Part shown: positions 4,010-23,079 of the stretch, piece after piece | How positions within the stretch are numbered: the first letter of the stretch is position 1 | How the letters are laid out: each line of letters starts with the position of its first letter | Assembly (NCBI GenBank): GCA_900549945.1 | Contig: URQJ01000006.1 | Span: 1 to 27,168, forward strand | Direction of reading: 5' to 3' | DNA length: 27,168 nt | Source of the DNA: an uncultured Oscillospiraceae bacterium | GTDB lineage: Bacteria > Bacillota > Clostridia > Oscillospirales > Acutalibacteraceae | Notes under the pieces: generated by a model | Databases searched by the model: none | What the model was told of the DNA's origin: nothing | What the model saw: only the letters and a program-made list of their open reading frames with translations | Made by a program: the position numbers and the translations under genes

Positions 4010-4011
4010 GG

Positions 4012-5764: not shown

Positions 5765-5911
5765 ATGCGGGAAAAGCGGCTTCAGGAAATAAAGCGAAAC
5801 GTGAAAAGTCTGTTTTCTAAAAATACCGGCTTCATTCCATGCGGATCGGCTTTCGCCCGTACAGTTTGGGGAAACATATTGAAACAAACAAGCAAAGGAG
5901 AACAATCATGA
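5765..5911 (+). CDS. possible 48-residue leader ORF, ATGA-coupled to the binding protein
   Basis: A short frame beginning MREKRLQEIKRNVK ends in a TGA that overlaps the binding-protein ATG (ATGA). AGGAGGTG at 5741-5748 is 16 bases before the ATG, which is too far for an ordinary start. No family is recognised. It may be a translated leader that couples expression, or chance. The strong ribosome site without a well-placed start codon is the odd point. Confidence 0.25.
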   Translation: MREKRLQEIKRNVKSLFSKNTGFIPCGSAFARTVWGNILKQTSKGEQS

Positions 5912-7905: not shown

Positions 7906-7962
7906 GAAACGCAATTTAGAGCAGACCGCAACGCTGTGACATGATTTGAATGCAGAGGAGGA

Positions 7963-8002
7963 GAGGCGTGCGTCCGGAAGCATCAGGACCGCGCCTCTTT
8001 TT
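7963..8002 (+). terminator. intercistronic hairpin/attenuator
   Basis: GAGGCG...GCGTCC pairs with GGACCGCGCCTC, with one bulge, and is followed by five T. It lies between the binding protein and the first permease of the operon. A partial terminator here would let the binding protein be made in excess over the membrane components. Without a further promoter, readthrough must supply the downstream genes. Confidence 0.65.
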
Positions 8003-8065
8003 CCGCATTTGTTTTGCCGCTTTGGCTGCGGCGGTTTGCTGATTCCCTTTAAAGGAGTGGAGGCT

Positions 8066-9064: not shown

Positions 9065-9081
9065 GGGAAGGGGGAAGGCAA

Positions 9082-9918: not shown

Positions 9919-9923
9919 CGGAT

Positions 9924-10895: not shown

Positions 10896-11867
10896 ATGGC
10901 TGAAAAATTGTTGGAAATCAAAGGGGTCAGCAAAATTTTCCGTATCGGCGGTATGATTCGCGGCAAAAAGTTGGTCGCAGTCGATGATGTTTCGATCTCC
11001 ATCGACAATGACAAGCCGGTTATTCTCTCCGTCGTCGGCGAATCCGGCTGCGGAAAATCCACCCTGTGCAAGATGGTGCTGCGCCTGCACCGCCCGGATA
11101 TGGGTGATATCATTCTGGACGGGAGATCTTATCTGGATAAAAAGGGGTATGATCCGCTGCAGTTCAAGCTGGATGTGCAGCCCATTTTCCAGAACCCTTA
11201 CGAATCCTTTTCCGCCCGTAAGCCGGTAGATTCCTATCTGTTCAATACGGCTCTGCGGCTCGGCATCGCGAAAAACCGGGAGGAAGCGACGAAGCTGGTG
11301 GACGAGGCACTGAAAAGCGTCGGCCTTTCTCTGGCAGTTGTAAAGGGAAAGTATCCCACGCAGTTTTCCGGCGGCGAACTGCAGCGCGTTTCCATCGCCC
11401 GCGCGCTGATTACCCGCCCGAAGCTGATCATTGCGGACGAGCCCGTCGCAGCGATTGACGCATCCATGAAGATGAATATCGTCAATCTGTTCAAGGAGCT
11501 CAAGGATAAGTATGGCATTTCCTTCATCTATATAACGCATGACCTCTCTACGGCGTACTATGTTTCGGATTACATTGCGACGCTGTACCGCGGCTGCCTG
11601 ATCGAGTACGGTCCGGCCAAGGAGATCATGGATAACCCGGCGCATCCGTATACGGAGCTTCTGATGAATGCAGTGCCGAAGGTGGGGGATAAGTGGAAAG
11701 AAGATCTGGTCCTTCCGGATATGGAGGATAAAGAGTATTCCATTTCCTACTGTAAATTTGCGCCCCGGTGTCCGTACGCCACCGATGAGTGCAGAAATGC
11801 GCGGCCCGGAGAAACCTATCTCAACGAGACGCGTAAGGTCATGTGCTTCCATCCCTTGAAGGGCTGA
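10896..11867 (+). CDS. ABC transporter ATP-binding protein (DppF/OppF type)
   Basis: The 323-residue partner ATPase. Walker A is GESGCGKST near residue 49, the signature is FSGGELQRVSIARAL near residue 160, and the Walker B region is LIIADEPVAAID. The C-terminal FAPRCPYATDEC extension is present. The usual DEPVSALD segment reads DEPVAAID here. The D-E pair and D-loop aspartate are kept, so this is a mild variation, not inactivation. Start and stop are unambiguous. It is the last gene of the operon and is followed by a terminator. Confidence 0.95.
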   Translation: MAEKLLEIKGVSKIFRIGGMIRGKKLVAVDDVSISIDNDKPVILSVVGESGCGKSTLCKMVLRLHRPDMGDIILDGRSYLDKKGYDPLQFKLDVQPIFQNPYESFSARKPVDSYLFNTALRLGIAKNREEATKLVDEALKSVGLSLAVVKGKYPTQFSGGELQRVSIARALITRPKLIIADEPVAAIDASMKMNIVNLFKELKDKYGISFIYITHDLSTAYYVSDYIATLYRGCLIEYGPAKEIMDNPAHPYTELLMNAVPKVGDKWKEDLVLPDMEDKEYSISYCKFAPRCPYATDECRNARPGETYLNETRKVMCFHPLKG

Positions 11868-11936
11868 ATCTGCTGAAAAACAGATTTCCCATTTGGAAAT
11901 AACCGGTTCTGGGTTAGGTTAATCCGGAAACTTCTG

Positions 11937-11981
11937 AACGGCGTGTGCCATGCTGCGGCAGGTATACGCCGTTTTTGTTTT
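11937..11981 (+). terminator. terminator of the ABC operon
   Basis: AACGGCGT (11937-11944) pairs with ACGCCGTT (11966-11973), and TGCC/GGCA can extend the pairing inside. A T-rich tail, TTTTTGTTTT, follows. A weaker AATCTG/CAGATT hairpin lies immediately after the stop codon. Confidence 0.85.
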
Positions 11982-12805
<824 letters not shown>

Positions 12806-13081
12806 GGGGGCGGCGGTAGGGGGCTACTGGGTTGGCTTTTGAAATGAAGTGCATATGCCTTTGAGTCTCAAATCGATCCGGTTTCGGGATTTGCCAGACC
12901 TATTCTAAAAGCTGTTTTTATAGTTCCGATAATGGGATAAGGAGAATGTAGAAAAGCGGGACCCCTACCTGAATAATCAGGCGGAAACCCCACTTTGACC
13001 AATTTAACTGCTGTTTGGATATCTATGGTGAAACCGTTTTCCGAATTTTGCCCCCAAAGCCCAAACCCGCATAAATACTAA
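12806..13081. other. non-coding stretch with nested hairpin
   Basis: No gene is seen. Around 12953-12998 a short perfect hairpin, CCTGA-ATAA-TCAGG, sits inside a longer pairing of AAAGCGGG with CCCCACTTT. It could be a structured RNA or a protein-binding site, and I have no match for it. Confidence 0.35.
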
Positions 13082-13112
13082 GAAAAAATGGAGTGACCAA
13101 AAGTCACTCCAT
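13082..13112 (-). terminator. minus-strand terminator downstream of the orphan gene
   Basis: A perfect 10-bp stem, ATGGAGTGAC/GTCACTCCAT (13088-13112), has a 5-base loop. Read on the minus strand it is followed by six T, so it would end transcripts from the gene at 13363-14466. Confidence 0.75.
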
Positions 13113-13269
13113 CGTGGGTTTGCGCTGCAAAAAGATGCCAGCAAAAAACCTTAGTCCCAATCCGCAAAAATTTGGTAGCAAGCCGAAGCGTTGTGAATGT
13201 GTTTACAAGCGAGTAGTGCAGGTGTGGCGCGACTTTTGCAGAGGAGGAGCGACAATCCAAACGGCGAAG

Positions 13270-13326
13270 CCGTGCCTTCCACGTCGCGGTAAATCCTTGA
13301 GGCTCGCCGCGACGTGGAAGGCACGG
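13270..13326. repeat. perfect 20-bp inverted repeat
   Basis: CCGTGCCTTCCACGTCGCGG (13270-13289) is repeated exactly in inverted orientation at 13307-13326, with a 17-base loop. It has no T-tail, is far longer than needed for a terminator, and sits between the recombinase and the orphan gene. It could be a dispersed palindromic repeat, a recombination site, or a structured RNA. Confidence 0.9.
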
Positions 13327-13362
13327 TCATAATTGATATTGTTTGAACTACTACAAAAACAT

Positions 13363-14466
13363 TTAGGTGATCGTAACAATATCAATCAAACCACTATCAG
13401 GATAATATTTTAAAGCAATTGTGGTTTTTCTAATATTGCCATGAATGGTTGGAAACTCAACACAGACATTAAACATCAGGTCGCCATATTGATTTTCTTT
13501 TAGGTTATAGATGTAATTGGCGCATATTTTCTTAAAGGCTTCTTCGGTAAAGCGTTTTTTGTCGTCCGAATCATAACCCAACGATTCAATAATCAGTCCC
13601 TTTCCTTTTTTCTTGTCTGTCAAATATTTACTCCACTTGTCGTCTGAAATATTTAGGGTGATTTTTTCAAAGGAATCAAATTTAGGAAATAGTGCATTAA
13701 AGGAAAAACCAATGTCATCTTTGTCCGGTACTTCGCTTTCTATTTTGTAACTCAGAAATGCGCTATAACTATCATCGTTTATACTCGAAAGCGAAAAACC
13801 ATTGGTTTCAAACGGAAACCCACGCATATTAATATTTTCTTCATCTGCACAATTCGAAGGATGTGACATAATAATTCTATTCTTACTTTTTATACAGACA
13901 GACGTAAGTATGGTGGAAAGGTAACTTTTAAACAAAGAACAATATGTTAAATCTGCAAATCCAGTAAACCACGAATACGGATAGAGCCCTTCAACAATTT
14001 TCAGCCGCTGGCTGCCGCTTAAGCGATTCACATAGATCAGGTAGTACTGGTTGCTATACATATACTTGAATTCATGACATCTTACCAAGACCTCGTGCAT
14101 TACAGAACGTAGCAGTTGCTGTGAACTGGGGTGCCGTAGAGTGTCAATATAATCCCCACACAGGATACTGTAGGTGCTGTCTTTGTCCAAAAGCGGAATT
14201 AACTTTTCAAATACATAATATCCATAGTCAGAAGAATTAATTTGGCTTGAGTCAATAACAAAGCATGTCTCAAATTTGTCCTTATCTTGATTTGGAATCA
14301 AAGCGCCTTTTAACGCATCATAAGAGATGTTTTTCAGCGTTAACTGTTTCTGTAAAATATTGAATCCACTCTGTATGGCCTCATAGACATTCTCATCACT
14401 GAGTTTAAAATAAGATTTCATAACAGGATATAAAAGATAGCCTTTTGCATCAAAGGTAAAAATCAT
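13363..14466 (-). CDS. AT-rich orphan protein of unknown function
   Basis: A 367-residue soluble protein with no signal peptide or membrane segment. I recognise no family. It begins MIFTFDAKGYLLYPVMKSYF and has a Lys/Asp/Ser-rich composition with AT-ending codons. By eye its GC is well below the roughly 60% of the flanking genes, which points to recent acquisition. GAGGAGACGTC precedes the ATG. Segments such as ETCFVIDSSQINSSDYGYYVFEKLIPLL alternate strands and helices without visible catalytic motifs. It lies just outside the left end of the integrated element, facing away from it. A defence or other accessory role is possible because of its island-edge location, but nothing in the sequence demonstrates it. 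Confidence 0.8.
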   Translation of the reverse strand: MIFTFDAKGYLLYPVMKSYFKLSDENVYEAIQSGFNILQKQLTLKNISYDALKGALIPNQDKDKFETCFVIDSSQINSSDYGYYVFEKLIPLLDKDSTYSILCGDYIDTLRHPSSQQLLRSVMHEVLVRCHEFKYMYSNQYYLIYVNRLSGSQRLKIVEGLYPYSWFTGFADLTYCSLFKSYLSTILTSVCIKSKNRIIMSHPSNCADEENINMRGFPFETNGFSLSSINDDSYSAFLSYKIESEVPDKDDIGFSFNALFPKFDSFEKITLNISDDKWSKYLTDKKKGKGLIIESLGYDSDDKKRFTEEAFKKICANYIYNLKENQYGDLMFNVCVEFPTIHGNIRKTTIALKYYPDSGLIDIVTIT

Positions 14467-14531
14467 GACGTCTCCTCTGCCTATTCATTATGCTGGTTGC
14501 ATATAGTTTCTTCAGATAATAAGAGGATTGT

Positions 14532-14582
14532 TAAAAGAAAAGCTGCATTTCAACCTTATAAACAAGGCTAAAATGCAGCTTT
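14532..14582 (-). terminator. original tRNA-Arg terminator, displaced by the insertion
   Basis: A perfect 12-bp stem, AAAGCTGCATTT/AAATGCAGCTTT (14539-14582), has extra CCTT/AAGG pairing inside and reads into TTTTCTTTT on the minus strand. It lies 4 bases beyond the left copy of the tRNA 3' fragment. It was therefore probably the native terminator of the tRNA gene before the element inserted. Confidence 0.85.
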
Positions 14583-14586
14583 AACT

Positions 14587-14635
14587 TGGCGCGCTTGAAG
14601 GGACTCGAACCCCTGACCTACTGGTTCGTAGCCAG
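14587..14635. repeat. attL: 49-bp copy of the tRNA-Arg 3' half
   Basis: Identical over 49 bases to 23003-23051, covering the CCA end through the anticodon loop and part of the 5' anticodon stem. The remaining 5' half of the tRNA is absent here, so this is an attachment site and not a second tRNA gene. Confidence 0.97.
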
Positions 14636-14746
14636 GAAACAGTGATTTTTCTGCCCAAACACAGCCAAAGGCAGAGCGGAAAAAGCTAGATTCTACGCGG
14701 GTATTCTACCGCCTGCGCGATAATCGCATCGGGCGGCAGGAGATGG

Positions 14747-14769
14747 AAAGTGTGTTACAAAGTGTGTTA
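14747..14769 (+). promoter_or_regulatory. left pair of integrase arm-type sites
   Basis: Two tandem AAAGTGTGTTA copies (14747-14757 and 14759-14769) have a 12-bp period. The same sequence and the same 12-bp phasing occur near the right end at 22909-22931. A CCGCC...GCGAT-A-ATCGC...GGCGG hairpin lies just to the left (14709-14736). Confidence 0.7.
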
Positions 14770-14770
14770 T

Positions 14771-14801
14771 AAAAAGCCGGGGGAAGCGGCGTTCCCTTGG
14801 C
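14771..14801 (-). terminator. terminator of the element's leftward operon
   Basis: On the minus strand an imperfect stem (GCC and GGGAA paired with TTCCC and GGC, two mismatches) is followed by five T, shortly after the last gene's stop codon. Confidence 0.6.
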
Positions 14802-14808
14802 CTTTTGT

Positions 14809-15213
14809 TTATTCCGGAATGTTGCCGCTCATTATGTCGAAGTGCCGACGGTAGCGGCGCGGAATCGTGAGATCGATCATATAGCCTAGGTCGGAGAGCA
14901 CATGCGAGATCGTGCGGAATCCGTCCTTGTAGAACTGGGCGATCCGCTTTTGCTTGTCGGCGATATGCGCGTAATCGGAGGGGCAGACGAACGTCCACTC
15001 GGCGGCCTTGTCGTCGAATACGACGCGAAAGCACCGGTCGAGGTTGATTTCGCCGATACCGGCTTTATTGAGCAGAATGTAGTGCTCCGGGGCTTCGTCA
15101 ATCGGCGCGATCGCAGCGGTTTCCTCGTCGTAGGTGATTGCGAGAATAAACATTTCGCTGGTGCCGAAGCGGGCGGTCACGGTTTCTTTATCGGGTACAT
15201 AGATCATGTTCAT
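14809..15213 (-). CDS. element protein of unknown function (134 aa)
   Basis: A soluble 134-residue protein beginning MNMIYVPDKETVTARFGTS. No family is recognised. The first half looks beta-rich (SEMFILAITYDEE, YILLNKAGIGEINL). The second half, with AHIADKQKRIAQFYKDGF and HVLSDLGYMIDL, looks helical. GGAGG lies 9 bases before the first ATG; a second in-frame ATG at 15207 is also possible. It is the last gene of the leftward operon, next to attL, where satellites and prophages often carry accessory genes. No function is claimed. Confidence 0.75.
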   Translation of the reverse strand: MNMIYVPDKETVTARFGTSEMFILAITYDEETAAIAPIDEAPEHYILLNKAGIGEINLDRCFRVVFDDKAAEWTFVCPSDYAHIADKQKRIAQFYKDGFRTISHVLSDLGYMIDLTIPRRYRRHFDIMSGNIPE

Positions 15214-15269
15214 GGCGTAATTCCTCCACGTGTCCTGCGGTGATTATACCGCATCCAGCGGGATAAAGC

Positions 15270-15303
15270 AAGTCCGGAAACCATAAGTACGGCTTCCGGA
15301 CTT
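15270..15303 (-). terminator. hairpin between the two left-end genes
   Basis: A perfect 10-bp stem, AAGTCCGGAA/TTCCGGACTT, begins 3 bases beyond the stop of the 204-residue gene. The T content after it is modest (GCTTTAT), so termination may be partial. Confidence 0.5.
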
Positions 15304-15306
15304 TAG

Positions 15307-15921
15307 TTATCCGATCATTTCGAGTAGATCGTAGTTGGTCGGATTCGGCTCTCCGAACGTCTCGACGATGTTTATCATAATGGGGCTGGAAACGCCTTGT
15401 CCAAAACCAATTCCGCGCATATTTTTCACGGCATCGACAGCACTTTCTGCAAATCTCGTATATGCAGCGATCTTTTTTTCTACGGTTGGAATAATGCTGG
15501 TGTCGTAATGGCTTGCGCGATCGAATTCGCTGTTTTCTCCATGTTTTCTGTTATGCGCTTCACCGCATTGGAGCAGGATGAAGCACATGGTTCCGTTTTT
15601 CTTGTGGCGTTCCACCATAGCTTCAAACTGTTCAAGGGATAGGTCGAACTTCAAGAGTTTCATGTCTCCGTCGTCGATCTTATTCCCATCCAGCGCACCC
15701 CATCTGCGGACGGCTTCGATGGCTTTGTCTTTTGCTTCATTGATGGAGTCGATGGCGCCCTGCCTCTGGGTTTCAAGTTCTGCATCCAGCTTTTTGATTT
15801 CGTTTGCAGCTACGTCTTCCTGATAGCGTTGCTTTGCGCGGTCAGCCTTTTCTTCATAAGCTTTTGCGGCGGCGTAGTAGCTGGATAATGCGTTTTTCAT
15901 GCTTTGCAGATAAGTGTTCAT
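15307..15921 (-). CDS. element protein of unknown function with N-terminal coiled coil (204 aa)
   Basis: A soluble 204-residue protein. Residues about 1-75 are strongly helical and charged (AYEEKADRAKQRYQED, KKLDAELETQRQGAIDSINE), as in a coiled coil. This is followed by a mixed domain with GTMCFILLQCGEAHNRKHGE and a glycine-rich NMRGIGFGQGVSSP near the C-terminus. No family is recognised. AAAGGAGG precedes the ATG. It lies downstream of the DUF4417 and Gly/Ser-rich genes in the same leftward operon. Its location and coiled coil would suit a structural or interference role, but that is speculation. Confidence 0.75.
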   Translation of the reverse strand: MNTYLQSMKNALSSYYAAAKAYEEKADRAKQRYQEDVAANEIKKLDAELETQRQGAIDSINEAKDKAIEAVRRWGALDGNKIDDGDMKLLKFDLSLEQFEAMVERHKKNGTMCFILLQCGEAHNRKHGENSEFDRASHYDTSIIPTVEKKIAAYTRFAESAVDAVKNMRGIGFGQGVSSPIMINIVETFGEPNPTNYDLLEMIG

Positions 15922-15935
15922 TTGGGGTTCCTCCT

Positions 15936-16202
15936 TTAGCTGTTTTTTATTACATAATTTCTGAGCTGCGCGGTTGTATTACCGGACATCAAAGACTTTG
16001 CTCGCCGGATGCCTTCCTCTCTTGACATTCCGGACTTCATAGCACTATTCGCAAAAATTGCGGTAGCAAATGTTTCGAGATCCTCTCGGGATAGGCCTTT
16101 TGCAATGTTTTTGGTTATCTTTGGAACAGAAAACGGTTCGCCGCTTCCGCTGCGACCTTTATTTCCACTGCCATTTTTTCCGCTGGATCCTCGTCCGCCC
16201 AT
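15936..16202 (-). CDS. small element protein with Gly/Ser/Lys-rich N-terminus (88 aa)
   Basis: An 88-residue protein. Residues 1-22 are a disordered MGGRGSSGKNGSGNKGRSGS tract, followed by a compact helical part (SREDLETFATAIFANSAMK, SREEGIRRAKSLM). No family is assigned. AAGGAGGCGG sits upstream, inside the end of the restored DUF4417 frame, whose TAA overlaps this ATG. The two genes are therefore translationally coupled if the DUF4417 frame is corrected. Confidence 0.75.
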   Translation of the reverse strand: MGGRGSSGKNGSGNKGRSGSGEPFSVPKITKNIAKGLSREDLETFATAIFANSAMKSGMSREEGIRRAKSLMSGNTTAQLRNYVIKNS

Positions 16203-16838
16203 TATTGACCGCCTCCTTTCTCAAATTTGTCGTAAAAGCATCCCATCGGGACAACTTCGCACTTCAATTCTGCAGGGATATGGCCATAGCAAAGAATTTG
16301 AGCTGGATTCAACCTTTTTTTTCATTTCTCTGTACCCTGCAAGGAACAAAGCCTTGCTTTCTCGTCTTTTTTGTGTTCCGATGGTGCTTATCGCTACGGC
16401 AGAGCCATGCGGCTCACCATCGAAACACCATTGAAAACTTTCCGGTCCTGCCCACGAAATCGTGGGAACTACGTTGATGCCAAGGCTTTGCCAATATGCG
16501 CCCACCCAATGCTTCCGGTAGTGATTATAAATCTGCAGAGCCGTGGGCATATTCGTGTAGATTGAGAAATCCGGAGCACAAACGGCTGCGAAATTTCTCA
16601 GCATGTGAATATATCGGTCCGGATATGTCCACACAACGTTGAATCTGTAATCATCCAAGAAAAAATGTAATCCGGAATGATTTGGACTTTTTGTGCTTTT
16701 TTTCTCGGAAAAACTCCAAAATTTAATTTCTGGTAGAATTGGAAGTGCGGGTGAAAGCTCCGGAATGTTATACGGTCCGGAACAATTTGCCGGGTCATAC
16801 GATCCTAAATTCTTGAAGGGCAATTCTGCCGTGTTCAT
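16202..16838 (-). CDS. DUF4417 protein with frameshift at an A8 tract
   Basis: The protein fits the DUF4417 family of phage and mobile-element proteins: PDFSIYTNMPTALQIYN, GINVVPTISW, SFQWCFDGEPHGSAVAIS and the helix following it. As written, the frame ends at 16221 with an atypical tail (LLWPYPCRIEVRS). At the minus-strand A8 run (16315-16322), reading with seven A gives ...EMKKRLNPAQILCYGHIPAE..., which is the expected family ending. That frame runs to a TAA at 16204-16202 that overlaps the next ATG, giving a normal 211-residue protein. The gene is therefore broken by one extra A, mis-assembled, or expressed through slippage. The biochemical function of DUF4417 is unknown to me. The start has AAAGGAG upstream. 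Confidence 0.85.
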
Positions 16839-16874
16839 TTTTTCTCCTTTGTGAATTTGCTCGGATGTGGATAT

Positions 16875-17015
16875 TTAAATCCGCTCAAGTTTTTTTATTG
16901 GTTGCGCTTTTTGGGCGAAACCTGCGCTTTTTTTGTATTGCTTTTTGTTTCGTTTCGCTTGCTTTTTTAGGACTTTCGAAATCTGCGGATCACCGGCTTG
17001 CGGATATGCGCGCAT
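16875..17015 (-). CDS. possible 46-residue highly basic protein
   Basis: A short frame in the gap between the ArpU-like gene and DUF4417, beginning MRAYPQAGDPQISKVLKKQ and continuing Lys/Arg-rich to ...PIKKLERI. About one third of the residues are Lys or Arg. The ribosome site is weak. Position within the operon and codon choice support it; its size, weak ribosome site and A-rich DNA count against it. If real, it might bind nucleic acid. Confidence 0.4.
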   Translation of the reverse strand: MRAYPQAGDPQISKVLKKQAKRNKKQYKKSAGFAQKAQPIKKLERI

Positions 17016-17030
17016 TGCCGTGTCCAGAAT

Positions 17031-17444
17031 TTATTTTTCGGGCATCGGAATTTCTGTGATCTTTTTCAATATTCTGGAAGCGCGGACCCGTGCTTGCGTT
17101 TCGCTCATATCCATTTCCGCAGCGATTGTGTACCATGTCGGGCGGCGCAGCCAGCTCTCCCGCTCCCGTGTATCCTTGGGGCCTAAATAGGCAAGCTCGG
17201 CAAGACGGTAATCCAAACGGGACAGCTTTGCAAGAACCGGCTGCAAGGTGTGATATGTTCGCTGTATATGCTCAAGCTGCGCCTGCTTGGCCTCGATTTC
17301 CTCGCGGTAATACTCAGACAGGGCAGGCACGGAAGCGGCGTTCCTATCGGCGTAAAGTGTGGCGATTTCGTCGCGCAGCTGTGCAATCTGCTCCGGCATA
17401 TCGTAAAAGCTGTTCAAAAGCCGTTCGGCTTCTTTAGGGGTCAT
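17031..17444 (-). CDS. phage-type transcriptional regulator (ArpU/sigma-70 region 4-like)
   Basis: A 137-residue protein. The N-terminal half is a long charged helix (YYREEIEAKQAQLEHIQRTY). The C-terminal half ends in a helix-turn-helix, WYTIAAEMDMSETQARVRAS (about residues 104-123), typical of phage late-gene regulators of the ArpU/RinA/DUF1492 kind. GAGGAGAAC lies upstream of the ATG. In phages such proteins switch on packaging and structural genes. None are present here, so it may act on the element's own left genes or on a helper phage, both inferences. Confidence 0.7.
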   Translation of the reverse strand: MTPKEAERLLNSFYDMPEQIAQLRDEIATLYADRNAASVPALSEYYREEIEAKQAQLEHIQRTYHTLQPVLAKLSRLDYRLAELAYLGPKDTRERESWLRRPTWYTIAAEMDMSETQARVRASRILKKITEIPMPEK

Positions 17445-17483
17445 GGGCGCGGTTCTCCTCGTTTCATTTTGGGAATTTATCGC

Positions 17484-17729
17484 TCAAGAAGGGGGGCAGT
17501 CGGTGCCGGAGGTATTCAGCTTTTTTCTGAGCAGCCCCCCGGGGGATAAATTTTCCTGCGCCGCTTTCCTTTCCCAATAGCGCCGCTGGTATTCGCGGCA
17601 TTTCTCGCGGTTTCGCCGCTTCCATTGCCGGGTATATTCCCGCTGCTTTTCGGCTTGTTCCGGGTGTGTGCGCCTGTATTCGCGCTGGTATGCACGGCGC
17701 AGTGCCTTTGCTTCTTCGCTCATGGTCAT
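17484..17729 (-). CDS. small highly charged helical protein (81 aa)
   Basis: An 81-residue protein rich in Arg, Glu and Tyr with a repetitive pattern: YQREYRRTHPEQAEKQREY, then WKRRNREKCREYQRRYW. It is almost certainly a long helix or coiled coil. Similar short proteins are common beside replication genes of Firmicutes phages, and no function is known to me. GGAGGTC is 6 bases before the first ATG (17729); a second ATG lies at 17723. An overlapping longer frame here has no family resemblance and is rejected. Confidence 0.7.
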   Translation of the reverse strand: MTMSEEAKALRRAYQREYRRTHPEQAEKQREYTRQWKRRNREKCREYQRRYWERKAAQENLSPGGLLRKKLNTSGTDCPPS

Positions 17730-17744
17730 CTGTTTGACCTCCCC

Positions 17745-18626
17745 CTATACATAATCCCCGCCGTATTTTTCGTACTGATCTACGGATTTCATCCACGGCT
17801 GATCGTCGTCGCTGTACTGTTGCAGATCGCCATACGAGGGCGTGTGTTTCGGCTTGTGCTCGTTCTGTTCCCAACTGTCGGCAATCTTTTTCCAGTTGCG
17901 AATAGGCTTTCCGTCGATCATCCAATCCCGGCGCTGATTGAAATCGTAGAATTTTTCGGGATTGATGTTTTTCCCCTTGCAGTATTCTTTGACCTCATCA
18001 AAAGAAGGAATAATACAGCCTGACGGACTGCCGTTTTGCCCTGTCTTGTCTAGGTCTATATCTTCTCTATCTCTAGGTCTATATCTAGGTCTGTCTCTCC
18101 GTAACGAAGTGACGCTATTTTCGTCACATTGTAACGCCTCCGCGTCACTTTGTGACGGCTTTTCGTCACATGATTGGCGCGTACACTCGCTATCTTGTGA
18201 CGCTTTTTCGTCACATGGTTTATTTTCGCTCGTAGTTGGCGTGTCATAATGTTCACCGGAGCGACTTCGAAGCTCCCGCATTCGATAGGCGCTCGCACCC
18301 TCTGAACCCAAATTCTCGCCGACAAAGGGGATGAAGTATTGATCGCTTGTTTTCTCGATCATCAAGCCGTATTGCTTCAAGAATCCAGTTACGGTAGAGA
18401 CGCTTTCAACATCTTCATTCAGCATAACGGCAATTTCTTCCTCCGGCGAATCCCCCATGCCTTCGAAAGTGAGAGTGCCGCCGCTTCGGAGGCTGGCGAG
18501 CATCATCCCCAGATAAATGCACACCAGCTTGTAGCCGTTTGGCTTTTGCTTCAAATACTTGATTTCTTTGGACTGAAAGAAATCTTCCGGCAGTCTCAGC
18601 CACCAGTATCTTTTTTCTTTGCTCAT
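17745..18626 (-). CDS. phage replisome organizer / replication initiator
   Basis: A 293-residue replication protein. Residues 1-110 match the phage replisome-organizer N-terminal winged-helix domain: YWWLRLPEDFFQSKEIKYLK, then NGYKLVCIYLGMMLASLRSGG. Residues about 125-200 are a low-complexity linker with repeated CDEK-x-SQ and an Arg/Asp stretch. The C-terminal part (PSFDEVKEYCKGKNINPEKF, RNWKKIADSW) resembles the helicase-loader-interacting tail of phage initiators. The linker DNA contains dense GTGAC/GTCAC repeats, so the origin probably lies within this gene. It should initiate replication of the excised element with host helicase. Start ATG at 18626. Confidence 0.85.
   Translation of the reverse strand: MSKEKRYWWLRLPEDFFQSKEIKYLKQKPNGYKLVCIYLGMMLASLRSGGTLTFEGMGDSPEEEIAVMLNEDVESVSTVTGFLKQYGLMIEKTSDQYFIPFVGENLGSEGASAYRMRELRSRSGEHYDTPTTSENKPCDEKASQDSECTRQSCDEKPSQSDAEALQCDENSVTSLRRDRPRYRPRDREDIDLDKTGQNGSPSGCIIPSFDEVKEYCKGKNINPEKFYDFNQRRDWMIDGKPIRNWKKIADSWEQNEHKPKHTPSYGDLQQYSDDDQPWMKSVDQYEKYGGDYV
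18109..18216. repeat. iteron-like repeats, candidate replication origin
   Basis: Within 108 bases there are seven GTGAC or GTCAC copies. These include three exact TTTTCGTCACAT units (18118-18129, 18160-18171, 18205-18216) and several inverted pairs. The adjacent 18058-18090 carries direct repeats of CTAGGTCTATATC. All of this lies in the linker-coding part of the initiator gene, as in lambda O. Confidence 0.65.
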
Positions 18627-18679
18627 TCTTGCTCCTTTTGCGTTAATGGAAAGCAGCGTTTTCCGCGCCGCAGGATTTC

Positions 18680-18871
18680 CTAGCTTTTGTTGTTGGTTTG
18701 TACTGCCTTTATACCGTCCGTATATCCTCGACGGTACGCGCTTTCCGTTGCCTCGTGAATTGCCAGCACGATTTCGCGCGATTTGGCGTCAAATTCTTTG
18801 CCCATGCTTTCGTAGTATTGCTTTGCTTCCGCAAGGACATCCTCCCGGCTGATATGCGAAACAGCGTTCAT
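18680..18871 (-). CDS. small element protein (63 aa)
   Basis: A 63-residue helical protein beginning MNAVSHISREDVLAEAKQYY. No family is recognised. Its ATG overlaps the preceding gene's TGA (ATGA at 18868-18871), so it is translationally coupled to it. It lies directly upstream of the replication initiator. Confidence 0.65.
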   Translation of the reverse strand: MNAVSHISREDVLAEAKQYYESMGKEFDAKSREIVLAIHEATESAYRRGYTDGIKAVQTNNKS

Positions 18872-19281
18872 CCCTGCTCACCGCCTTTCTGTTTTGTTGC
18901 CATTAAGCGGCGGCGCTTTGTGCTGGCATACTCACGTGCAAGAATCTGTGCCAGAAAGCACGCGTCCTTGTGTGGCAGGGTGGTCTTAAGCTGCTTCCGC
19001 CAGAGTGCCAGCCGGTCGATCCATTTGCCGTCTTCTGGGGGAGAAGCAATGGCGCGCTGGACGTCCTCGTCGAAAGTAAGAAATACAGCTTTCATTTTTC
19101 GATAGGAATCATCGCGCGCATCAAGGTTGTTCCCCTCGAGCGTCCAAGGCCAGTATCCCCAATCTGTGATTTGCATTCTTCGAACGGTTCGCACCCGGAC
19201 TTCATCGGTTCCGCTGCGTCGCGCGCGGCGGATTTCCTTTGTGATCTGGATGGCGGTTGACAAGTCTTTAAATATCTGCAT
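18868..19281 (-). CDS. element protein of unknown function (137 aa)
   Basis: A 137-residue soluble protein beginning MQIFKDLSTAIQITKEIRR. It is rich in Arg and Trp (TDWGYWPWTLEGNNLDARDD, WIDRLALWRKQL). No domain is recognised. GGAGG lies 5-6 bases before the ATG. It overlaps the small membrane protein gene by 14 bases and the following gene by 4. A + strand promoter sits across its ribosome-binding region, so transcription of the antisense RNA could interfere with this gene as well. Confidence 0.7.
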   Translation of the reverse strand: MQIFKDLSTAIQITKEIRRARRSGTDEVRVRTVRRMQITDWGYWPWTLEGNNLDARDDSYRKMKAVFLTFDEDVQRAIASPPEDGKWIDRLALWRKQLKTTLPHKDACFLAQILAREYASTKRRRLMATKQKGGEQG

Positions 19282-19513
19282 TGCATTTTCCTCCGCTTTC
19301 TGGTATAGTGGAGGTGGAAACAGGCTTCCTAAATCTGTTCCACCCTGCCGCTTCGGTGTTCCCGCATCGAAGCGGCTTTTTTATGTTGGCGATTTCTGGC
19401 GATCTGTGCGCCGCTTCCGCGGGAGGGTCGAGCATGTCCCACAGCTTTTCCAGAAGCCCGCAAAGGCCAATCAGCCCGCACATGCCGGTGATGCCAGCCA
19501 GTATGTAAATCAT
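19268..19513 (-). CDS. small membrane protein with one N-terminal helix (81 aa)
   Basis: MIYILAGITGMCGLIGLCGL at the start is a single hydrophobic helix followed by an acidic turn and a polar 50-residue tail. GGGAGG precedes the ATG, which overlaps the upstream TGA (ATGA at 19510-19513). The tail-coding DNA contains two hairpins and, on the opposite strand, a promoter and terminator. The true protein could be a small membrane toxin or holin-like regulator. The tail has low coding character, so the frame is less certain than its neighbours. Confidence 0.55.
   Translation of the reverse strand: MIYILAGITGMCGLIGLCGLLEKLWDMLDPPAEAAHRSPEIANIKKPLRCGNTEAAGWNRFRKPVSTSTIPESGGKCNADI
19281..19309 (+). 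promoter_or_regulatory. candidate + strand promoter inside the leftward operon
   Basis: TTGCAT (19281-19286) and TATAGT (19304-19309) are exactly 17 bases apart, with a TG extension before the -10. It points against the surrounding genes. Confidence 0.55.
19316..19382 (+). ncRNA. candidate ~67-nt antisense RNA
   Basis: A predicted start near 19316 is followed by a hairpin (GGTGGAAACAG at 19313-19323 with CTGTTCCACC at 19335-19344, one bulge). A strong terminator follows: perfect 9-bp stem GCCGCTTCG/CGAAGCGGC (19347-19376), then six T. It is fully antisense to the small membrane protein gene. Promoter, fold and terminator are seen; expression is inferred. Confidence 0.5.
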
Positions 19514-19743
19514 ACGGCCCTCCCGGGCGCCTGCCCATCGATGAAATATTCCACCCAATCCGTGCGGGGAATCTCGAGCAGATTGCCTATCTTCTGTATG
19601 TCCTCGCCGCTCCACGGCATAAAGCCATTGATGCGCGCGGAGATGTACGTCTGTCCGCGGCCGGTTATTTCCATCAGCTCGGCCTGCGTAACACCGCATT
19701 CAAACATGCGGCCTTTGAGCTTCGACCATCTTCTTGCTGCCAT
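19510..19743 (-). CDS. XRE-like helix-turn-helix protein (77 aa)
   Basis: A 77-residue DNA-binding protein. The HTH is around residues 17-40 (VTQAELMEITGRGQTYIS), followed by GEDIQKIGNLLEIPRTDW, a layout like small phage XRE/DUF739 proteins. AGAAAGGACGG is upstream. It may be an accessory regulator or excisionase-like factor of the element; no dedicated excisionase was otherwise found. Confidence 0.75.
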   Translation of the reverse strand: MAARRWSKLKGRMFECGVTQAELMEITGRGQTYISARINGFMPWSGEDIQKIGNLLEIPRTDWVEYFIDGQAPGRAV

Positions 19744-19861
19744 TGTTATTCCGTCCTTTCTGTTTTCGTGCGATTTCAGCCCTTGCTGGGTCGAGGGGTA
19801 AAACTACCTTGCCCGCCGCGAAAAGGGGCCTTCTCCAGCGCTGCGCAGCGTTTGCCACGTG

Positions 19862-20143
19862 TTACATGTTGAGCGCCGCGATCTTCGCTTCAAAATCGGC
19901 TGTGACCTTTTCGAGGTGCCGGGCGAATGCTTGCAGCGTTTGAAGCTCGCCGCTTTCTACGCCGCGTTTCATCTCACGCGATACAGCAACGCGGAGAGCC
20001 TGCGCGAGGGTCCGGCAATATGCTGGGTCAAGCATTACGGTTTCCGTGCCTTCTCCACGGCTTCTCGGCCTTTCTCTCGGCGTTCCGATGATGTATTGAT
20101 ACTTGTCCGCAGTGATGGCAAGCCTTTCGTTCAACCAGATCAT
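19862..20143 (-). CDS. small element protein (93 aa)
   Basis: A 93-residue soluble protein beginning MIWLNERLAITADKYQYIIG, with a helical second half (QTLQAFARHLEKVTADFEAK). No function is recognised. Its ATG overlaps the TGA of the antirepressor-like gene (ATGA at 20140-20143). The 118-base gap after it holds no gene that I can see. Confidence 0.65.
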   Translation of the reverse strand: MIWLNERLAITADKYQYIIGTPRERPRSRGEGTETVMLDPAYCRTLAQALRVAVSREMKRGVESGELQTLQAFARHLEKVTADFEAKIAALNM

Positions 20144-20802
20144 TCCGCAGCACTTCCTTTCCGCAGGAATACGGCTTTCATCGTCTCGTAGTCGATGCCC
20201 ACGGCGTACAGCCCGGCGATCGCCGCTTCCTGCTTCTGGTAGGCTTCAAGCTCGTCCGCGGTCAGAAGATCGAGGGTCCGCCGGTCGCTGCCGGGCGCGC
20301 GGTCCTTCTTGATCTGCGCCGCTGTCTTGCCGAACGCCGCCTTGTATGCAAGATCGGTATACAGCTTGTAGTCCCACTTGCTGTGGTTTGGGTTGTCCCG
20401 GATCATGTCGGTCAGGCTGCGCCGCTGGGGCTTGCCCTCGGTGCGCAGCGCTTTGAATCGAGCAATCTCGGCGCGCATGGCGTAGAATTCGCGGACGAGG
20501 GCTCTCTTGAAGGCCTTGACCGGCTCTGTGTTGCGCAGGTATGTAATCAAAAGGGTGGCCTGCTGCTCGTTCAGGTGGTAGAGCTTTTCCTTTTGGCCTG
20601 TTGCGGATTCTTCTAAAGCTCGGATTTCAAATCCGACCTTTCCGAATGCTTTAAGGTCTTTTTGATGGTTGCGGATGAGCCTTGTGACCGTCGAGCGGCG
20701 CACCTGCGCGCAGCTCGCAATGATCTCATCCGTGGTGAACGGTTCATCGTCTCCCGCTTCCAGAAACACCAGGCACGGAAGCGGCGTTGGAGTGTGGGTC
20801 AT
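20140..20802 (-). CDS. Rha-family phage regulatory protein / antirepressor
   Basis: A 220-residue protein resembling Rha. The N-terminal part has the HTH-like FTTDEIIASCAQVRRSTVTR, then YHLNEQQATLLITYLRNTEP and FKRALVREFYAMRAEI, the conserved core of Rha and related antirepressors. The C-terminal 90 residues contain DYKLYTDLAYKAAFGKTAAQ. AGGAGGAC precedes the ATG. It follows the Cro-like gene in the early operon. In phages such proteins interfere with the repressor or host functions at induction. Here it is a candidate to trigger derepression, because the CI-like repressor lacks a cleavage domain. Confidence 0.75.
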   Translation of the reverse strand: MTHTPTPLPCLVFLEAGDDEPFTTDEIIASCAQVRRSTVTRLIRNHQKDLKAFGKVGFEIRALEESATGQKEKLYHLNEQQATLLITYLRNTEPVKAFKRALVREFYAMRAEIARFKALRTEGKPQRRSLTDMIRDNPNHSKWDYKLYTDLAYKAAFGKTAAQIKKDRAPGSDRRTLDLLTADELEAYQKQEAAIAGLYAVGIDYETMKAVFLRKGSAAE

Positions 20803-20805
20803 GGT

Positions 20806-21012
20806 TTAGTCCTCCTTTTCGGTCTCGATGATCTCGGCAACGTCTACACCCAGTGCGCGGGCTATCGCTTTCCCAACAAGGTCGGAACAGAATTTCCCGG
20901 AGCGGACTTTCGTAATAGTTGGACGTGAAGCGCCGGATAACTCCGCAAGCCGCTTCACGGTCATGCGTTGCCGTGCCATTTCGGCAATCAGTTTTACACG
21001 ATCAATTTGCAC
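20806..21012 (-). CDS. Cro-like XRE-family regulator (68 aa)
   Basis: A 68-residue HTH protein, first gene of the leftward early operon. RMTVKRLAELSGASRPTITK is the HTH. It starts at GTG 21012 with AGAGAGGTGA upstream. It is transcribed divergently from the CI-like gene across three shared operators, as in lambdoid switches. Confidence 0.88.
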   Translation of the reverse strand: MQIDRVKLIAEMARQRMTVKRLAELSGASRPTITKVRSGKFCSDLVGKAIARALGVDVAEIIETEKED

Positions 21013-21032
21013 TTTGATTCACCTCTCTCGGT

Positions 21033-21099
21033 ATTCGTTTGAATCTATTATATGAGATTCATTTGAATTTGTCAAGGGCGTTTTTGTATTCACTTGAAT
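21033..21099. promoter_or_regulatory. three lysogeny-switch operators
   Basis: Three 12-bp sites share the ATTC-R-N2-TGAAT pattern: ATTCGTTTGAAT (21033-21044), ATTCATTTGAAT (21057-21068) and ATTCACTTGAAT (21088-21099). The first two flank or overlap the early promoter. The third overlaps the -35 of the repressor promoter, which suits repressor and Cro competition. Confidence 0.8.
21047..21075 (-). promoter_or_regulatory. early leftward promoter
   Basis: On the minus strand, TTGACA (21075-21070) and TATAAT (21052-21047) are 17 bases apart, a perfect consensus promoter. One operator lies in its spacer and another at the transcription start. Confidence 0.9.
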
Positions 21100-21122
21100 A
21101 TTTTACAGCTTTGTGTTAAAAT
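21094..21122 (+). promoter_or_regulatory. repressor promoter
   Basis: TTGAAT (21094-21099) and TAAAAT (21117-21122) are 17 bases apart. The -35 lies in the third operator, allowing autoregulation. Confidence 0.7.
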
Positions 21123-21141
21123 CCAATTTAGAGGTGAGAGT

Positions 21142-21591
21142 ATGGACATAGGATCGAGAATAAAAGAAATACGCAGTGCGTCCGGGCTTACTCAGTCCCA
21201 GCTTGCGGAACTCAGCGGAGTGGCAGTTATCTCAATTAGGCAGTATGAATCTGGAAAACGTCAGCCACGTGTCGATCAGCTTCGGGCAATTGCCTCGGCT
21301 CTAGGGGTAACGGTAGACTACTTGCTTGATATAAAACCTGCCCGTGCAGTTGATCCAGACGAAACCACAGAGGAAAGAGAAAAGCGACTTGGATTACCAA
21401 AAGGCGCGCTGAGCAATATGCAAAAAGTCGAAGATGTGGAAGCGCAGAACAAGGCCGATATGGATAAAGCCATGGATGCCTTGAACATTGCAGGGCAGCG
21501 GGAAGCTGTAAAACGCGTGCGGGAAATGGCAAGTACGGAAGAGTATAAGCGAACGTCATTTTCCGATGTGTGGGGATATGGAAAGAAGTAG
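21142..21591 (+). CDS. CI-like XRE-family repressor (149 aa)
   Basis: A 149-residue repressor. A clear HTH_3 domain fills residues 1-65 (IRSASGLTQSQLAELSGVAV, then VDQLRAIASALGVTVDYLL). The remaining 80 residues are a charged helical tail with no S24/LexA peptidase motifs. SOS-type self-cleavage is therefore unlikely, and no ImmA-like protease gene is present. The ATG at 21142 has GAGGTGAGAG before it; in-frame TTG codons upstream lie in the operator region and are rejected. It should hold the element dormant by binding the three operators. Confidence 0.9.
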   Translation: MDIGSRIKEIRSASGLTQSQLAELSGVAVISIRQYESGKRQPRVDQLRAIASALGVTVDYLLDIKPARAVDPDETTEEREKRLGLPKGALSNMQKVEDVEAQNKADMDKAMDALNIAGQREAVKRVREMASTEEYKRTSFSDVWGYGKK

Positions 21592-21690
21592 ACCTTAAAT
21601 TTTTGGGGAGGTTCACGCGAATAAAAATAGAGCGGCCATATCAAGAATCCCGCGCAGGGCGCAGAGGAATCGGAAAAGAGGTGTATTCTG

Positions 21691-22908
21691 GTGGGAAAGC
21701 GGACGAACACCGCGGCATGGAGCGACAAATACAAGCGCTGGCAGATCAACGTGCAGAAGGACGGCCTGCGCCGCAGCTTCTACAGCTCCACGCCCGGCCG
21801 GAGCGGGCAGCGCGAAGCGAACGCAAAGGCGGATGCCTGGCTGGACAGCGACATCATCGGCGCCGCTTCCAACGTCGAAAAGCTGTTCAACGAATTCGCG
21901 GAAGCAAACAAGCTGCTTGCGGGTTCCTCGGCGGCGAAGCAGATCGACTATTACAGGCGCGTGTGGATCGCGCCGCACCTCGGGCGTGTGAAGATCGCGA
22001 ACATCTGCGACAACGATGTGCAGAAGCTCCTCGATCTCATGGTTTCCAAGGAGCTTTCCCGCAAGTCCGTGCAGAACTGCAAGGGGATCCTCTCCAAATT
22101 CCTAAAATGGTGCCGGAAGAACAGATACACCGATTACCGGCCGGACGATGTGGAAATATCGGCGAGCGCCCGGAACAAAGGCAAGCGCGTGTTGCAGCCG
22201 GCAGAGCTGGCGACGCTGTTTTCCTCCACGGAAACGACGTTCAACGGGAAGCCGATGGAGGACCCCTATATTTATTGCTACCGGTTCGCGGTCCTGACCG
22301 GCCTGCGCCCGGGCGAGCTGCGCGGGCTGAAATGGGAGGACATAGCCGGCAATGTGGTGCACGTCCGCTGGGCGATCAACATTCACGGCGAGGAAACGCA
22401 CGGTAAGAACGAAAACGCGGTGCGCAGCTTCGTGCTTTCCGATCAGGCCGCCGAAGCCCTGCAAAAGCAGAGGGAGCAGGGGAACCCCGGCGAATATGTT
22501 TTCCCGCTTCCGTCACATTCCGTCTATTACACTCACTGGAAAGCCTATTGCACGCACAACGGCATCACGCCGGTAAGCCTTTATGAGCTGCGACATACTT
22601 TCGTGAGCATCGCCAAGGCGCTGCCGGAGGGGGAGATCAAGCCGCTTGTGGGCCATTCCCGGAATATGGACACGTTCGGCACCTATGGCCACGAGCTGAG
22701 CGGTGAGGACACAGCCACAGCCCGCAAGGTGACGGAGATCTTCGACCGCCTGACCGCGCCGGAGAAAGCGGAGGAAAGCGGCGATACGATGCAGCGGCTC
22801 AAGGACAAGCTGCGCAGCGCCGTGGACGAAGAAACCGCCGCCGAAATTCTCGCGCTGGTCGATGCGCTCATAAAAGAAAAAAGCGCCGGAAAAACCGGCG
22901 CAAAATGA
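21691..22908 (+). CDS. int: tyrosine recombinase (integrase)
   Basis: A 405-residue phage/ICE-type integrase that catalyses integration into and excision from the tRNA-Arg gene. The layout is an N-terminal arm-binding domain, a SAM-like core-binding domain (about residues 60-150), then the catalytic domain. Catalytic features are the first Arg in TGLRPGELRG, the second Arg in YELRHTF, the third-box His in LVGHSRN, and the nucleophile Tyr in TFGTYGHE. The usual His of the H-x-x-R box is Tyr here (Y-E-L-R). GTG start at 21691 with AAGAGGTG upstream. It lies next to attR, and its last codons form a minus-strand terminator. Confidence 0.95.
   Translation: MGKRTNTAAWSDKYKRWQINVQKDGLRRSFYSSTPGRSGQREANAKADAWLDSDIIGAASNVEKLFNEFAEANKLLAGSSAAKQIDYYRRVWIAPHLGRVKIANICDNDVQKLLDLMVSKELSRKSVQNCKGILSKFLKWCRKNRYTDYRPDDVEISASARNKGKRVLQPAELATLFSSTETTFNGKPMEDPYIYCYRFAVLTGLRPGELRGLKWEDIAGNVVHVRWAINIHGEETHGKNENAVRSFVLSDQAAEALQKQREQGNPGEYVFPLPSHSVYYTHWKAYCTHNGITPVSLYELRHTFVSIAKALPEGEIKPLVGHSRNMDTFGTYGHELSGEDTATARKVTEIFDRLTAPEKAEESGDTMQRLKDKLRSAVDEETAAEILALVDALIKEKSAGKTGAK
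22877..22901 (-). terminator. minus-strand terminator inside the integrase 3' end
   Basis: A perfect 7-bp stem, GCGCCGG/CCGGCGC (22883-22901), is followed on the minus strand by six T. It would stop transcripts entering the element from the tRNA side. Confidence 0.7.
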
Positions 22909-22931
22909 AAAGTGTGTTATTTTATGTGTTA
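22909..22931 (+). promoter_or_regulatory. right pair of integrase arm-type sites
   Basis: AAAGTGTGTTA (22909-22919) and TTATGTGTTA (22922-22931) place their shared GTGTTA cores 12 bp apart, exactly as in the left pair at 14747-14769 and in the same orientation. Confidence 0.7.
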
Positions 22932-22966
22932 CGGAACACAGATAAAAGGCAGACAGAAAAAGAAAG

Positions 22967-22997
22967 AACCCGCAAAAACTCAATGTTTCTGCGGGTT
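22967..22997 (-). terminator. element-supplied terminator for tRNA-Arg
   Basis: AACCCGCA/TGCGGGTT (22967-22997) reads into CTTTCTTTTT on the minus strand. It lies 5 bases beyond the tRNA CCA end and replaces the native terminator now found at 14532-14582. It also has some T-tail on the + strand, where it could end integrase transcripts. Confidence 0.8.
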
Positions 22998-23002
22998 TTC
23001 TG

Positions 23003-23051
23003 TGGCGCGCTTGAAGGGACTCGAACCCCTGACCTACTGGTTCGTAGCCAG
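23003..23051. repeat. attR: 49-bp repeat within the intact tRNA
   Basis: Identical to attL at 14587-14635. The repeat spans the anticodon loop, where many tRNA-targeting integrases cut. Confidence 0.97.
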
Positions 23052-23079
23052 TCACTCTATCCAGCTGAGCTACAAGCGC
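23003..23079 (-). tRNA. tRNA-Arg: tRNA-Arg (anticodon ACG)
   Basis: The full cloverleaf is visible on the minus strand. The acceptor GCGCTTG pairs with CAAGCGC, the D arm is GCTCAGCTGGATAGAGT, the anticodon loop CTACGAA gives ACG, the T arm has GGTTCGAGTCC, and the CCA end is encoded. The gene is whole even though an element sits in its 3' end, because the element supplied the identical 49 bases. Confidence 0.97.

What the first reader, a model, noticed from the sequence alone, without database searches (positions are those of the whole stretch)
14587..23051. Complete 8.4-kb integrated element with exact 49-bp attL/attR in tRNA-Arg(ACG)
The two ends carry an identical 49-bp repeat covering the tRNA CCA end through the anticodon loop. 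The integrase lies next to the intact tRNA copy, and the left copy lacks the tRNA 5' half. This fixes both boundaries to the base and predicts the empty site: tRNA 23079-23003 joined to 14586 and leftward.
Basis: seen in the sequence. Interest (0 to 1): 0.8.

Follow-up and report, generated by a model that had tools for sequence, protein, structure and literature searches.

The report
Small phage-like element in tRNA gene
An 8.4-kb piece of phage-derived DNA appears to have inserted itself into an arginine tRNA gene of a Clostridia-type bacterium and rebuilt the gene as it did so; this is a common way for such elements to settle, and since no genes for making virus particles were recognised in it, it probably depends on other phages or is the leftover of one.

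Summary
An exact 49-bp repeat lies at 14587-14635 and 23003-23051; the right copy is nt 29-77 of tRNA-Arg(ACG), the left a displaced 3' fragment. The same pair lies beside the integrase gene in 11 of 19 related loci and twice, flanking the site, in an apparently unintegrated phage scaffold, MT837424. The unit is 8,416 bp.

Two inferences go too far. A 49-bp identity does not fix the crossover to the base. The predicted empty site was not seen: in UBA1417, syntenic and unoccupied, the tRNA is followed by a terminator matching 22943-23002, inside the element (54 of 61 columns), not by the sequence left of 14587. My reading: this terminator is carried in the attP, as in MT837424, with a shared origin in UBA1417. 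The DNA left of 14587 may itself be foreign.

Among 16 predicted genes, lysogeny, regulation and replication genes were recognised but no packaging, head, tail or lysis gene. It resembles a PICI-type phage satellite; a truncated prophage is the main rival. New member of a known kind.

The parts
23003..23079 (-). intact tRNA-Arg(ACG), rebuilt attachment gene
   Evidence: ARAGORN; Rfam
23003..23051 (-). core of tRNA-proximal attachment site (tRNA nt 29-77)
14587..14635 (-). core of distal attachment site, displaced 3' tRNA fragment
22912..22931 (-). tandem arm-type integrase site beside int (TAACACAT-AAAA-TAACACAC)
14750..14769 (-). tandem arm-type integrase site at distal end (TAACACAC-TTTG-TAACACAC)
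22943..23002 (-). terminator-like hairpin between core and arm (T); element-borne under the integration model; matches the tRNA 3' flank of UBA1417 (54 of 61 columns)
14523..14586 (-). different terminator-like hairpin directly after the displaced fragment (X), outside the element
21691..22908 (+). tyrosine integrase, 405 aa
   Evidence: Pfam PF00589; PHROG 1; alignment
21142..21591 (+). XRE/HTH_3 repressor-like regulator, 149 aa
20806..21012 (-). Cro-like HTH protein, divergent from the repressor
20140..20802 (-). Rha-family phage regulator, 220 aa
   Evidence: PF09669; PHROG 2657
19862..20143 (-). 93-aa protein, match to PHROG 154 (replication initiation), E 3.1e-7
19510..19743 (-). DUF739 HTH protein
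19268..19513 (-). 81-aa ORF, no match
18868..19281 (-). 137-aa ORF, no match
18680..18871 (-). 63-aa ORF, no significant match
17745..18626 (-). phage replisome organiser (Phage_rep_org_N), 293 aa
   Evidence: PF09681; TIGR01714; PHROG 5968
17484..17729 (-). 81-aa protein, PHROG 14214 (unknown function)
17031..17444 (-). PHROG 36 transcriptional regulator; sub-threshold RinA-family match
   Evidence: (23.5 bits, cut-off 31.9)
16221..16838 (-). DUF4417 protein (PHROG 940 'nuclease')
15936..16202 (-). 88-aa ORF, no significant match
15307..15921 (-). 204-aa ORF, no significant match
14809..15213 (-). 134-aa conserved unnamed protein, last gene before the distal core

Best explanation
An 8,416-bp phage-derived integrative element whose tyrosine integrase recombined an attP with the tRNA-Arg(ACG) gene. 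The attP order is arm pair - terminator - 49-bp tRNA 3' fragment - arm pair. Integration cut the gene within its last 49 nt, which include the anticodon loop, supplied a new 3' end plus a terminator on the tRNA side, and left the original 3' end at 14587-14635. The gene plan is integrase and repressor facing one way; Cro-like, Rha, replisome organiser and PHROG 36 regulator facing the other; and no recognised packaging, head, tail or lysis gene. This fits a PICI-type satellite: silent under its repressor, excised and copied when de-repressed, packaged only by a helper phage. Shown by sequence: anatomy, arm sites, gene families, lack of recognised virion genes. Inferred: excision, replication, helper dependence, and that the terminator at 22943-23002 came in with the element.
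For: Exact repeat and displaced fragment. Arm pairs at both ends, 0.00 expected in shuffles. The same pair (up to 3 mismatches) lies -2 to +40 bp from the integrase end in 11 of 19 related loci scanned (about 7 independent); 3 of the 8 misses hold 15 or fewer bases past the gene; 1 hit in 261,709 shuffled bases. MT837424 (L300), a scaffold from human faecal samples joining an integrase to holin and endolysin-like genes across the site, reads integrase - arm - hairpin - 23 nt of a tRNA 3' end - arm. A second small element, L149 in genome G350: related integrase (48-49%), arm pairs at both ends, a 25-bp repeat in tRNA-Gly(CCC) 11,856 bp apart, repressor, primase/helicase-like and PHROG 36 genes, and no virion-category PHROG hit at E <= 0.01 in the 10 proteins tested. 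Integrase relatives at 78-98% exist in 14 protein clusters; in 5 of the 14 the longest contig is 8.1-9.9 kb.
Against: No relative carries the predicted empty site (no positive control). The tRNA 3' flank of UBA1417 matches the inside of the element, and far better (z 22-25) than the MT837424 attP hairpin does (z 4.4). No excised form or read could be examined; no whole genome is held for the window. No TerS, cos/pac site or interference gene was identified (cos/pac not searched). Close relatives of the replisome organiser and of the 134-aa end protein lie on contigs of 84-288 kb, so these genes are not tied to an 8-kb unit. Of 17 window proteins tried only integrase and DUF739 found a match in L149 (two queries were in the wrong frame), and its 220-aa protein does not match the 204-aa protein here.
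Confidence: 0.55

Rival explanations
1. Truncated prophage: a full siphophage-like prophage integrated at tRNA-Arg and lost its late region, leaving the early genes between intact attachment sites.
For: 9 of 12 viral-contig relatives of the integrase lie on contigs of 16.7-46 kb, and FP_Lugh (34 kb, complete phage) has one at 41%. FP_Lugh runs integrase - repressor - HTH - ... - PHROG 36 regulator - terminase small subunit; the window has a similar order up to a PHROG 36 regulator but no terminase after it.
Against: The 16 predicted genes are open, both attachment cores and both arm pairs are intact, and an independent small element of similar plan exists (L149). The two PHROG 36 proteins share no significant BLASTP match, so direct descent from a Lugh-like phage is not shown.
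Confidence: 0.38
2. The DNA left of 14587 is not the native flank but another mobile element in tandem; the hairpin X (14523-14586) belongs to that neighbour and the true empty site is the tRNA joined to something further left. (Compatible with the best explanation; concerns the flank only.)
For: The windows 13001-14000 and 13501-14500 have 38% and 36% G+C; the other 51 one-kb windows have 44-65%. X and ORF 13363-14466 were not found in relatives (0 of 148; 0 of 198). A resolvase-type recombinase lies at 12200-12805. Islander describes tandem arrays at tRNA genes (PMC4383910, passages).
Against: No third core copy in the window. Of the two ORFs scanned at 11850-14586 one is a serine recombinase and the other has no match; no second tyrosine integrase was seen.
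Confidence: 0.45
3. The terminator at 22943-23002 is the native tRNA terminator and the contig is rearranged or chimeric at the 49-bp repeat.
For: UBA1417, syntenic up to the tRNA (83% over 4.2 kb), has this terminator with no related integrase in its genome (G001, 0 matches at E <= 1e-60); the match stops about 60 bp past the tRNA.
Against: Arm pairs flank both cores at attP-like spacing (71 + 49 + 114 bp), as in MT837424 (arms 190 bp apart, hairpin between the integrase-side arm and the core). The ten bases after CCA in the window equal those of MT837424 (CAGAAAACCC) and differ from UBA1417 (CGAAAAACCC).
Confidence: 0.07

Closest known systems
tRNA-targeting integrative islands (Islander class; PMC4383910)
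   Same: tRNA gene plus same-orientation 3' fragment downstream, tyrosine integrase between them, 2-200 kb, fragment reaching through the anticodon region
   Different: nothing found that departs from the class
Phage satellites of the PICI/StCI type (PMC13376191)
   Same: integrase between direct repeats, 7-20 kb, regulatory and replication genes, no recognised virion genes
   Different: no terminase small subunit or interference gene recognised; helper dependence untested
Faecalibacterium phage FP_Lugh (NC_047912) and phage scaffold MT837424
   Same: related integrase (41% and 49%) with arm-type sites beside it (3 mismatches in FP_Lugh, exact in MT837424); MT837424 also has a hairpin and a tRNA 3' fragment between two arm pairs; FP_Lugh has a similar early gene order
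   Different: both carry lysis genes and FP_Lugh a complete late region; none recognised in the window element
L149, 11.9-kb element in genome G350 at tRNA-Gly(CCC)
   Same: integrase family, arm pairs at both ends, tRNA 3' repeat, XRE-type regulator, PHROG 36 regulator, no virion genes among 10 proteins tested
   Different: the intact tRNA lies at the end away from the integrase; different replication gene and cargo; its distal core is the contig's first base, so the outer flank is not seen
L273 (IMG/VR UViG_2698536367_000002; host not named in any call)
   Same: integrase, XRE regulator, Rha and Phage_rep_org_N in the same order
   Different: only distantly similar integrase (23% over 168 aa); lies beside a RecF/SMC-like gene, no tRNA in the locus; has an IstB/DnaC-like ATPase

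Membership tests
tRNA-targeting integrative island (criteria of Islander, PMC4383910) | intact tRNA gene plus a 3' fragment downstream in the same orientation | tested here: met
tRNA-targeting integrative island (criteria of Islander, PMC4383910) | tyrosine integrase gene inside the interval | tested here: met
   PF00589
tRNA-targeting integrative island (criteria of Islander, PMC4383910) | length 2-200 kb | tested here: met
   8,416 bp
tRNA-targeting integrative island (criteria of Islander, PMC4383910) | (added here, not an Islander filter) uninterrupted site in a relative as predicted | tested here: inconclusive
   UBA1417 is unoccupied but carries another 3' flank; predicted flank in 0 of 148 relatives, no positive control
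Phage satellite (criteria stated for StCIs, PMC13376191) | integrase between direct repeats, 7-20 kb | tested here: met
Phage satellite (criteria stated for StCIs, PMC13376191) | regulatory and replication genes | tested here: met
Phage satellite (criteria stated for StCIs, PMC13376191) | no virion structural genes | tested here: met
   16 predicted genes scanned with Pfam and PHROGs; the only head/packaging-category hits seen are weak HTH matches of the Cro-like protein to TerS models (E 0.0087 and 0.024), below 15 better matches, 13 of them to transcription regulators. For the XRE and Cro-like proteins 25 of 42 and 25 of 29 PHROG hits were shown
Phage satellite (criteria stated for StCIs, PMC13376191) | (PICI literature) excision, replication and packaging with help of a phage | not testable with these tools
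   needs cells or particles
Complete autonomous prophage | terminase, capsid, tail and lysis genes | tested here: not met
   none recognised among 16 predicted genes
Integrative conjugative or mobilizable element | relaxase or type IV secretion genes | tested here: not met
   no such Pfam match among the 16 predicted genes; origin of transfer not searched

The most novel reading that the evidence does not exclude
A family of small satellites in Ruminococcaceae-type bacteria shares its integrase and arm-site code with full phages of the same hosts, and carries in its attP not only a tRNA 3' end but also the host tRNA's own transcription terminator, so that each integration swaps both the gene end and its terminator. 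That would help explain why the 3' flanks of this tRNA look different in almost every relative listed.
Probability: 0.3. Interest if true: 0.5.

Novelty: new member of a known kind. Interest (0 to 1): 0.3.

Why it matters
It gives a defined small element with both attachment cores and both arm-type sites readable from sequence, and an arm-site motif (TAACACAC-N4-TAACACAC) that marks the attachment site of a group of phage integrases and can help find the ends of related prophages and satellites. It also cautions that the sequence right after a tRNA may come from past elements, so a relative's empty site need not look as predicted.

Tried and rejected
Rejected: ordinary tRNA cluster (one tRNA in the window). 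Rejected as weak: an older third core copy (scores within the range of 10 shuffles).

Led nowhere: near matches of the whole element in the phage and plasmid collections (none); two exact patterns (core plus terminator; arm pair) in viral contigs (0 and 0); replisome organiser and 134-aa protein in viral contigs (no pattern match; 4 pattern matches, none a relative); a closer integrase in whole genomes (5 of 394, 3 of 398 and 2 of 198 genomes at E <= 1e-60, best 55% identity; the three samples overlap). So no second copy of this same element could be read as DNA. The replisome organiser and the 134-aa protein were each found in 1 of 250 family genomes. The left part 1-14586 showed the transporter operon at 77% in 2 of 9 genomes tried (G003, G014) but no joint with the tRNA. 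ORF 13363-14466 has no match in the phage records. Model of the 134-aa protein (mean pLDDT 89.2) has no match at E <= 0.001 in PDB or BFVD, and its profile only three PDB-sequence hits with E 0.062 or worse. DUF4417 protein and ORF 13363-14466 match no PDB sequence at E <= 0.1. PADLOC: 7 proteins, one hit at E 0.053. Exact direct repeats of 18 bp or more beside the integrase were sought in 12 other relatives and found in none (the stretches held are partial).

Errors of my own: under-counted arm sites because a best-match setting hid the second window site; one search replaces it. In some searches two of 17 query translations (Cro-like and 63-aa protein) were in the wrong frame, so their lack of hits says nothing.

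Literature searches covered only the held open-access library. No claim of absence from print is made.
Full report
What is there. The window has one tRNA, tRNA-Arg(ACG) at 23003-23079 on the minus strand. Its last 49 nt (nt 29-77) recur exactly at 14587-14635, with no other copy at up to 3 mismatches and none expected by chance. The interval of 8,416 bp holds, on the tRNA side, a tyrosine integrase gene reading toward the tRNA (21691-22908; PF00589).

Arm sites. Both ends carry a tandem pair, TAACACAY-N4-TAACACAC, at 14750-14769 and 22912-22931, where 0.00 matches are expected. I scanned 19 loci with related integrases, leaving out L146 (only 44 aa of integrase), L155, L156, L301 and the short duplicates L129-L134. 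In 11 of 19 a pair with up to 3 mismatches lies -2 to +40 bp from the integrase end: L137, L138, L139, L140, L144, L145, L148, L149, L151, L300, L302. Eight lack it (L135, L136, L141, L142, L143, L147, L150, L152); three of these (L135, L142, L143) have 15 or fewer bases past the gene. Several of the 11 look like repeats of one phage (L137/L148, L138-L140, L144/L145), so the independent number is about seven. The orientation of the pair relative to the integrase varies between loci. One round of shuffled sequences gave 1 hit in 261,709 bases.

A free attP for comparison. MT837424 (L300), a 6.9-kb scaffold from human faecal samples, joins an integrase (49% identical) to holin and endolysin-like genes across integrase - arm 3838-3857 - hairpin - 23 nt of a tRNA 3' end - arm 4048-4067. 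In a prophage these two gene sets would lie at opposite ends, so I take this to be the unintegrated form (inference). The window, closed into a circle, would have the same order with 71 bp, 49 bp and 114 bp between the arms. So the hairpin at 22943-23002, between arm and core, belongs to the attP under this model.

The empty-site prediction. L001 (Ruminococcaceae bacterium UBA1417) shares the neighbouring genes (83% over 4.2 kb; glycosyltransferase 92%) and has the same tRNA; its genome G001 has no related integrase at E <= 1e-60. Its 3' flank matches window 22943-23002 in 54 of 61 columns and then drops to background, while the outer flank 14527-14586 scores within the shuffled range. Of 47 3' flanks compared (three of them from phage loci; tRNA matches not reaching nt 77 and flanks under 50 bases were dropped), UBA1417, seen twice as L001 and L081, stands at z 22-25 and no other exceeds 5.4; the MT837424 hairpin reaches 4.4. 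The outer flank X has a best z of 3.6. X was found in 0 of 148 relatives and ORF 13363-14466 in 0 of 198, both without a positive control. Either a terminator like that of UBA1417 was captured into the attP, or the UBA1417 terminator is a scar of a lost relative of the element; the data do not separate these.

What the element encodes. Sixteen predicted genes were scanned with Pfam and PHROGs. They include integrase, XRE regulator, divergent Cro-like protein, Rha, DUF739, replisome organiser (also TIGR01714), a PHROG 36 regulator (sub-threshold RinA match) and DUF4417; most of the rest are unassigned. No terminase, capsid, tail or lysis gene was recognised. The Cro-like HTH has weak TerS-model matches (E 0.0087 and 0.024), behind 15 better matches; for it and for the XRE protein the PHROG lists were cut at 25 rows. 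In FP_Lugh a PHROG 36 gene lies just before the terminase small subunit; here it is followed by DUF4417 and unassigned genes. The two PHROG 36 proteins do not match each other significantly by BLASTP.

A second small element. L149, the first 12,000 bases of a 94,913-base contig of genome G350, has a 48-49% integrase, arm pairs at 139-158 and 11788-11807 (the latter with 2 mismatches), and a 25-bp repeat at 1-25 and 11857-11881 that is the 3' end of tRNA-Gly(CCC). Ten proteins tested gave XRE-type, primase/helicase-like, PHROG 36 and sigma-like matches and no virion-category hit at E <= 0.01. The intact tRNA lies at the end away from the integrase, again with a hairpin-like stretch between core and arm (read by eye). 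Of the window's proteins only integrase and DUF739 matched in L149. This favours a recurring satellite plan over a single accident of deletion, but it is one case with largely different genes.

Relatives by protein. The integrase has 14 listed relatives at 78-98% identity over 98-100% of its length; in 5 of the 14 the longest contig is 8.1-9.9 kb (habitat not stated). One contig length, 115,894, appears both for an 86% integrase and a 47% replisome organiser, which suggests but does not prove linkage. Close relatives of the replisome organiser and of the 134-aa protein also lie on contigs of 84-288 kb.

Judgement. Site-specific integration into tRNA-Arg is close to certain (about 0.93). Satellite against truncated prophage is about 0.55 to 0.38. 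Papers: PMC4383910, PMC13376191, PMC8022706 (P22-type attP rebuilding thrW) and PMC9897764 were seen as abstract parts and passages found by terms; all others as search listings only. That arm-type sites flank the core in the attP of lambda-type integrases, and the names PICI-like behaviour and ArpU, are recalled knowledge.

Noticed in passing
window 14809-15213 (-): The 134-aa end protein belongs to a well-conserved family (62 relatives; 23 invariant columns in 28 sequences) with no Pfam or PHROG match and a confident model (pLDDT 89) without a counterpart at E <= 0.001 in PDB or BFVD. In L179 a 57% relative sits directly upstream of a large serine recombinase, so it may be tied to mobile-element ends.
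   Followed up: partly
window 13363-14466 (-): A 367-aa ORF in DNA of 36-38% G+C, unlike its surroundings, with no match in Pfam, PHROGs, NCBIfam, PADLOC, PDB sequences, phage records or 198 relatives.
   Followed up: partly
window 12200-12805 (+): Serine resolvase/invertase-type recombinase (PF00239) between the peptide transporter operon and the low-GC ORF; similar DNA (71-74%) in G003, G010 and G011.
   Followed up: no
window 13270-13326: Perfect 20-bp inverted repeat with a 17-bp loop.
   Followed up: no
tRNA 3' flanks in relatives: By eye, nearly every relative has a different hairpin after its tRNA-Arg(ACG)-like gene (some rows are other tRNAs), as if the flank were often replaced.
   Followed up: partly
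L149:1-12000: Second small element without recognised virion genes, between a tRNA-Gly(CCC) and its 25-bp fragment, with the integrase at the far end.
   Followed up: partly
P0179 (206 aa): A relative of the 134-aa protein joined to a transposase domain (PF05598); may be an insertion-sequence fusion ORF.
   Followed up: no
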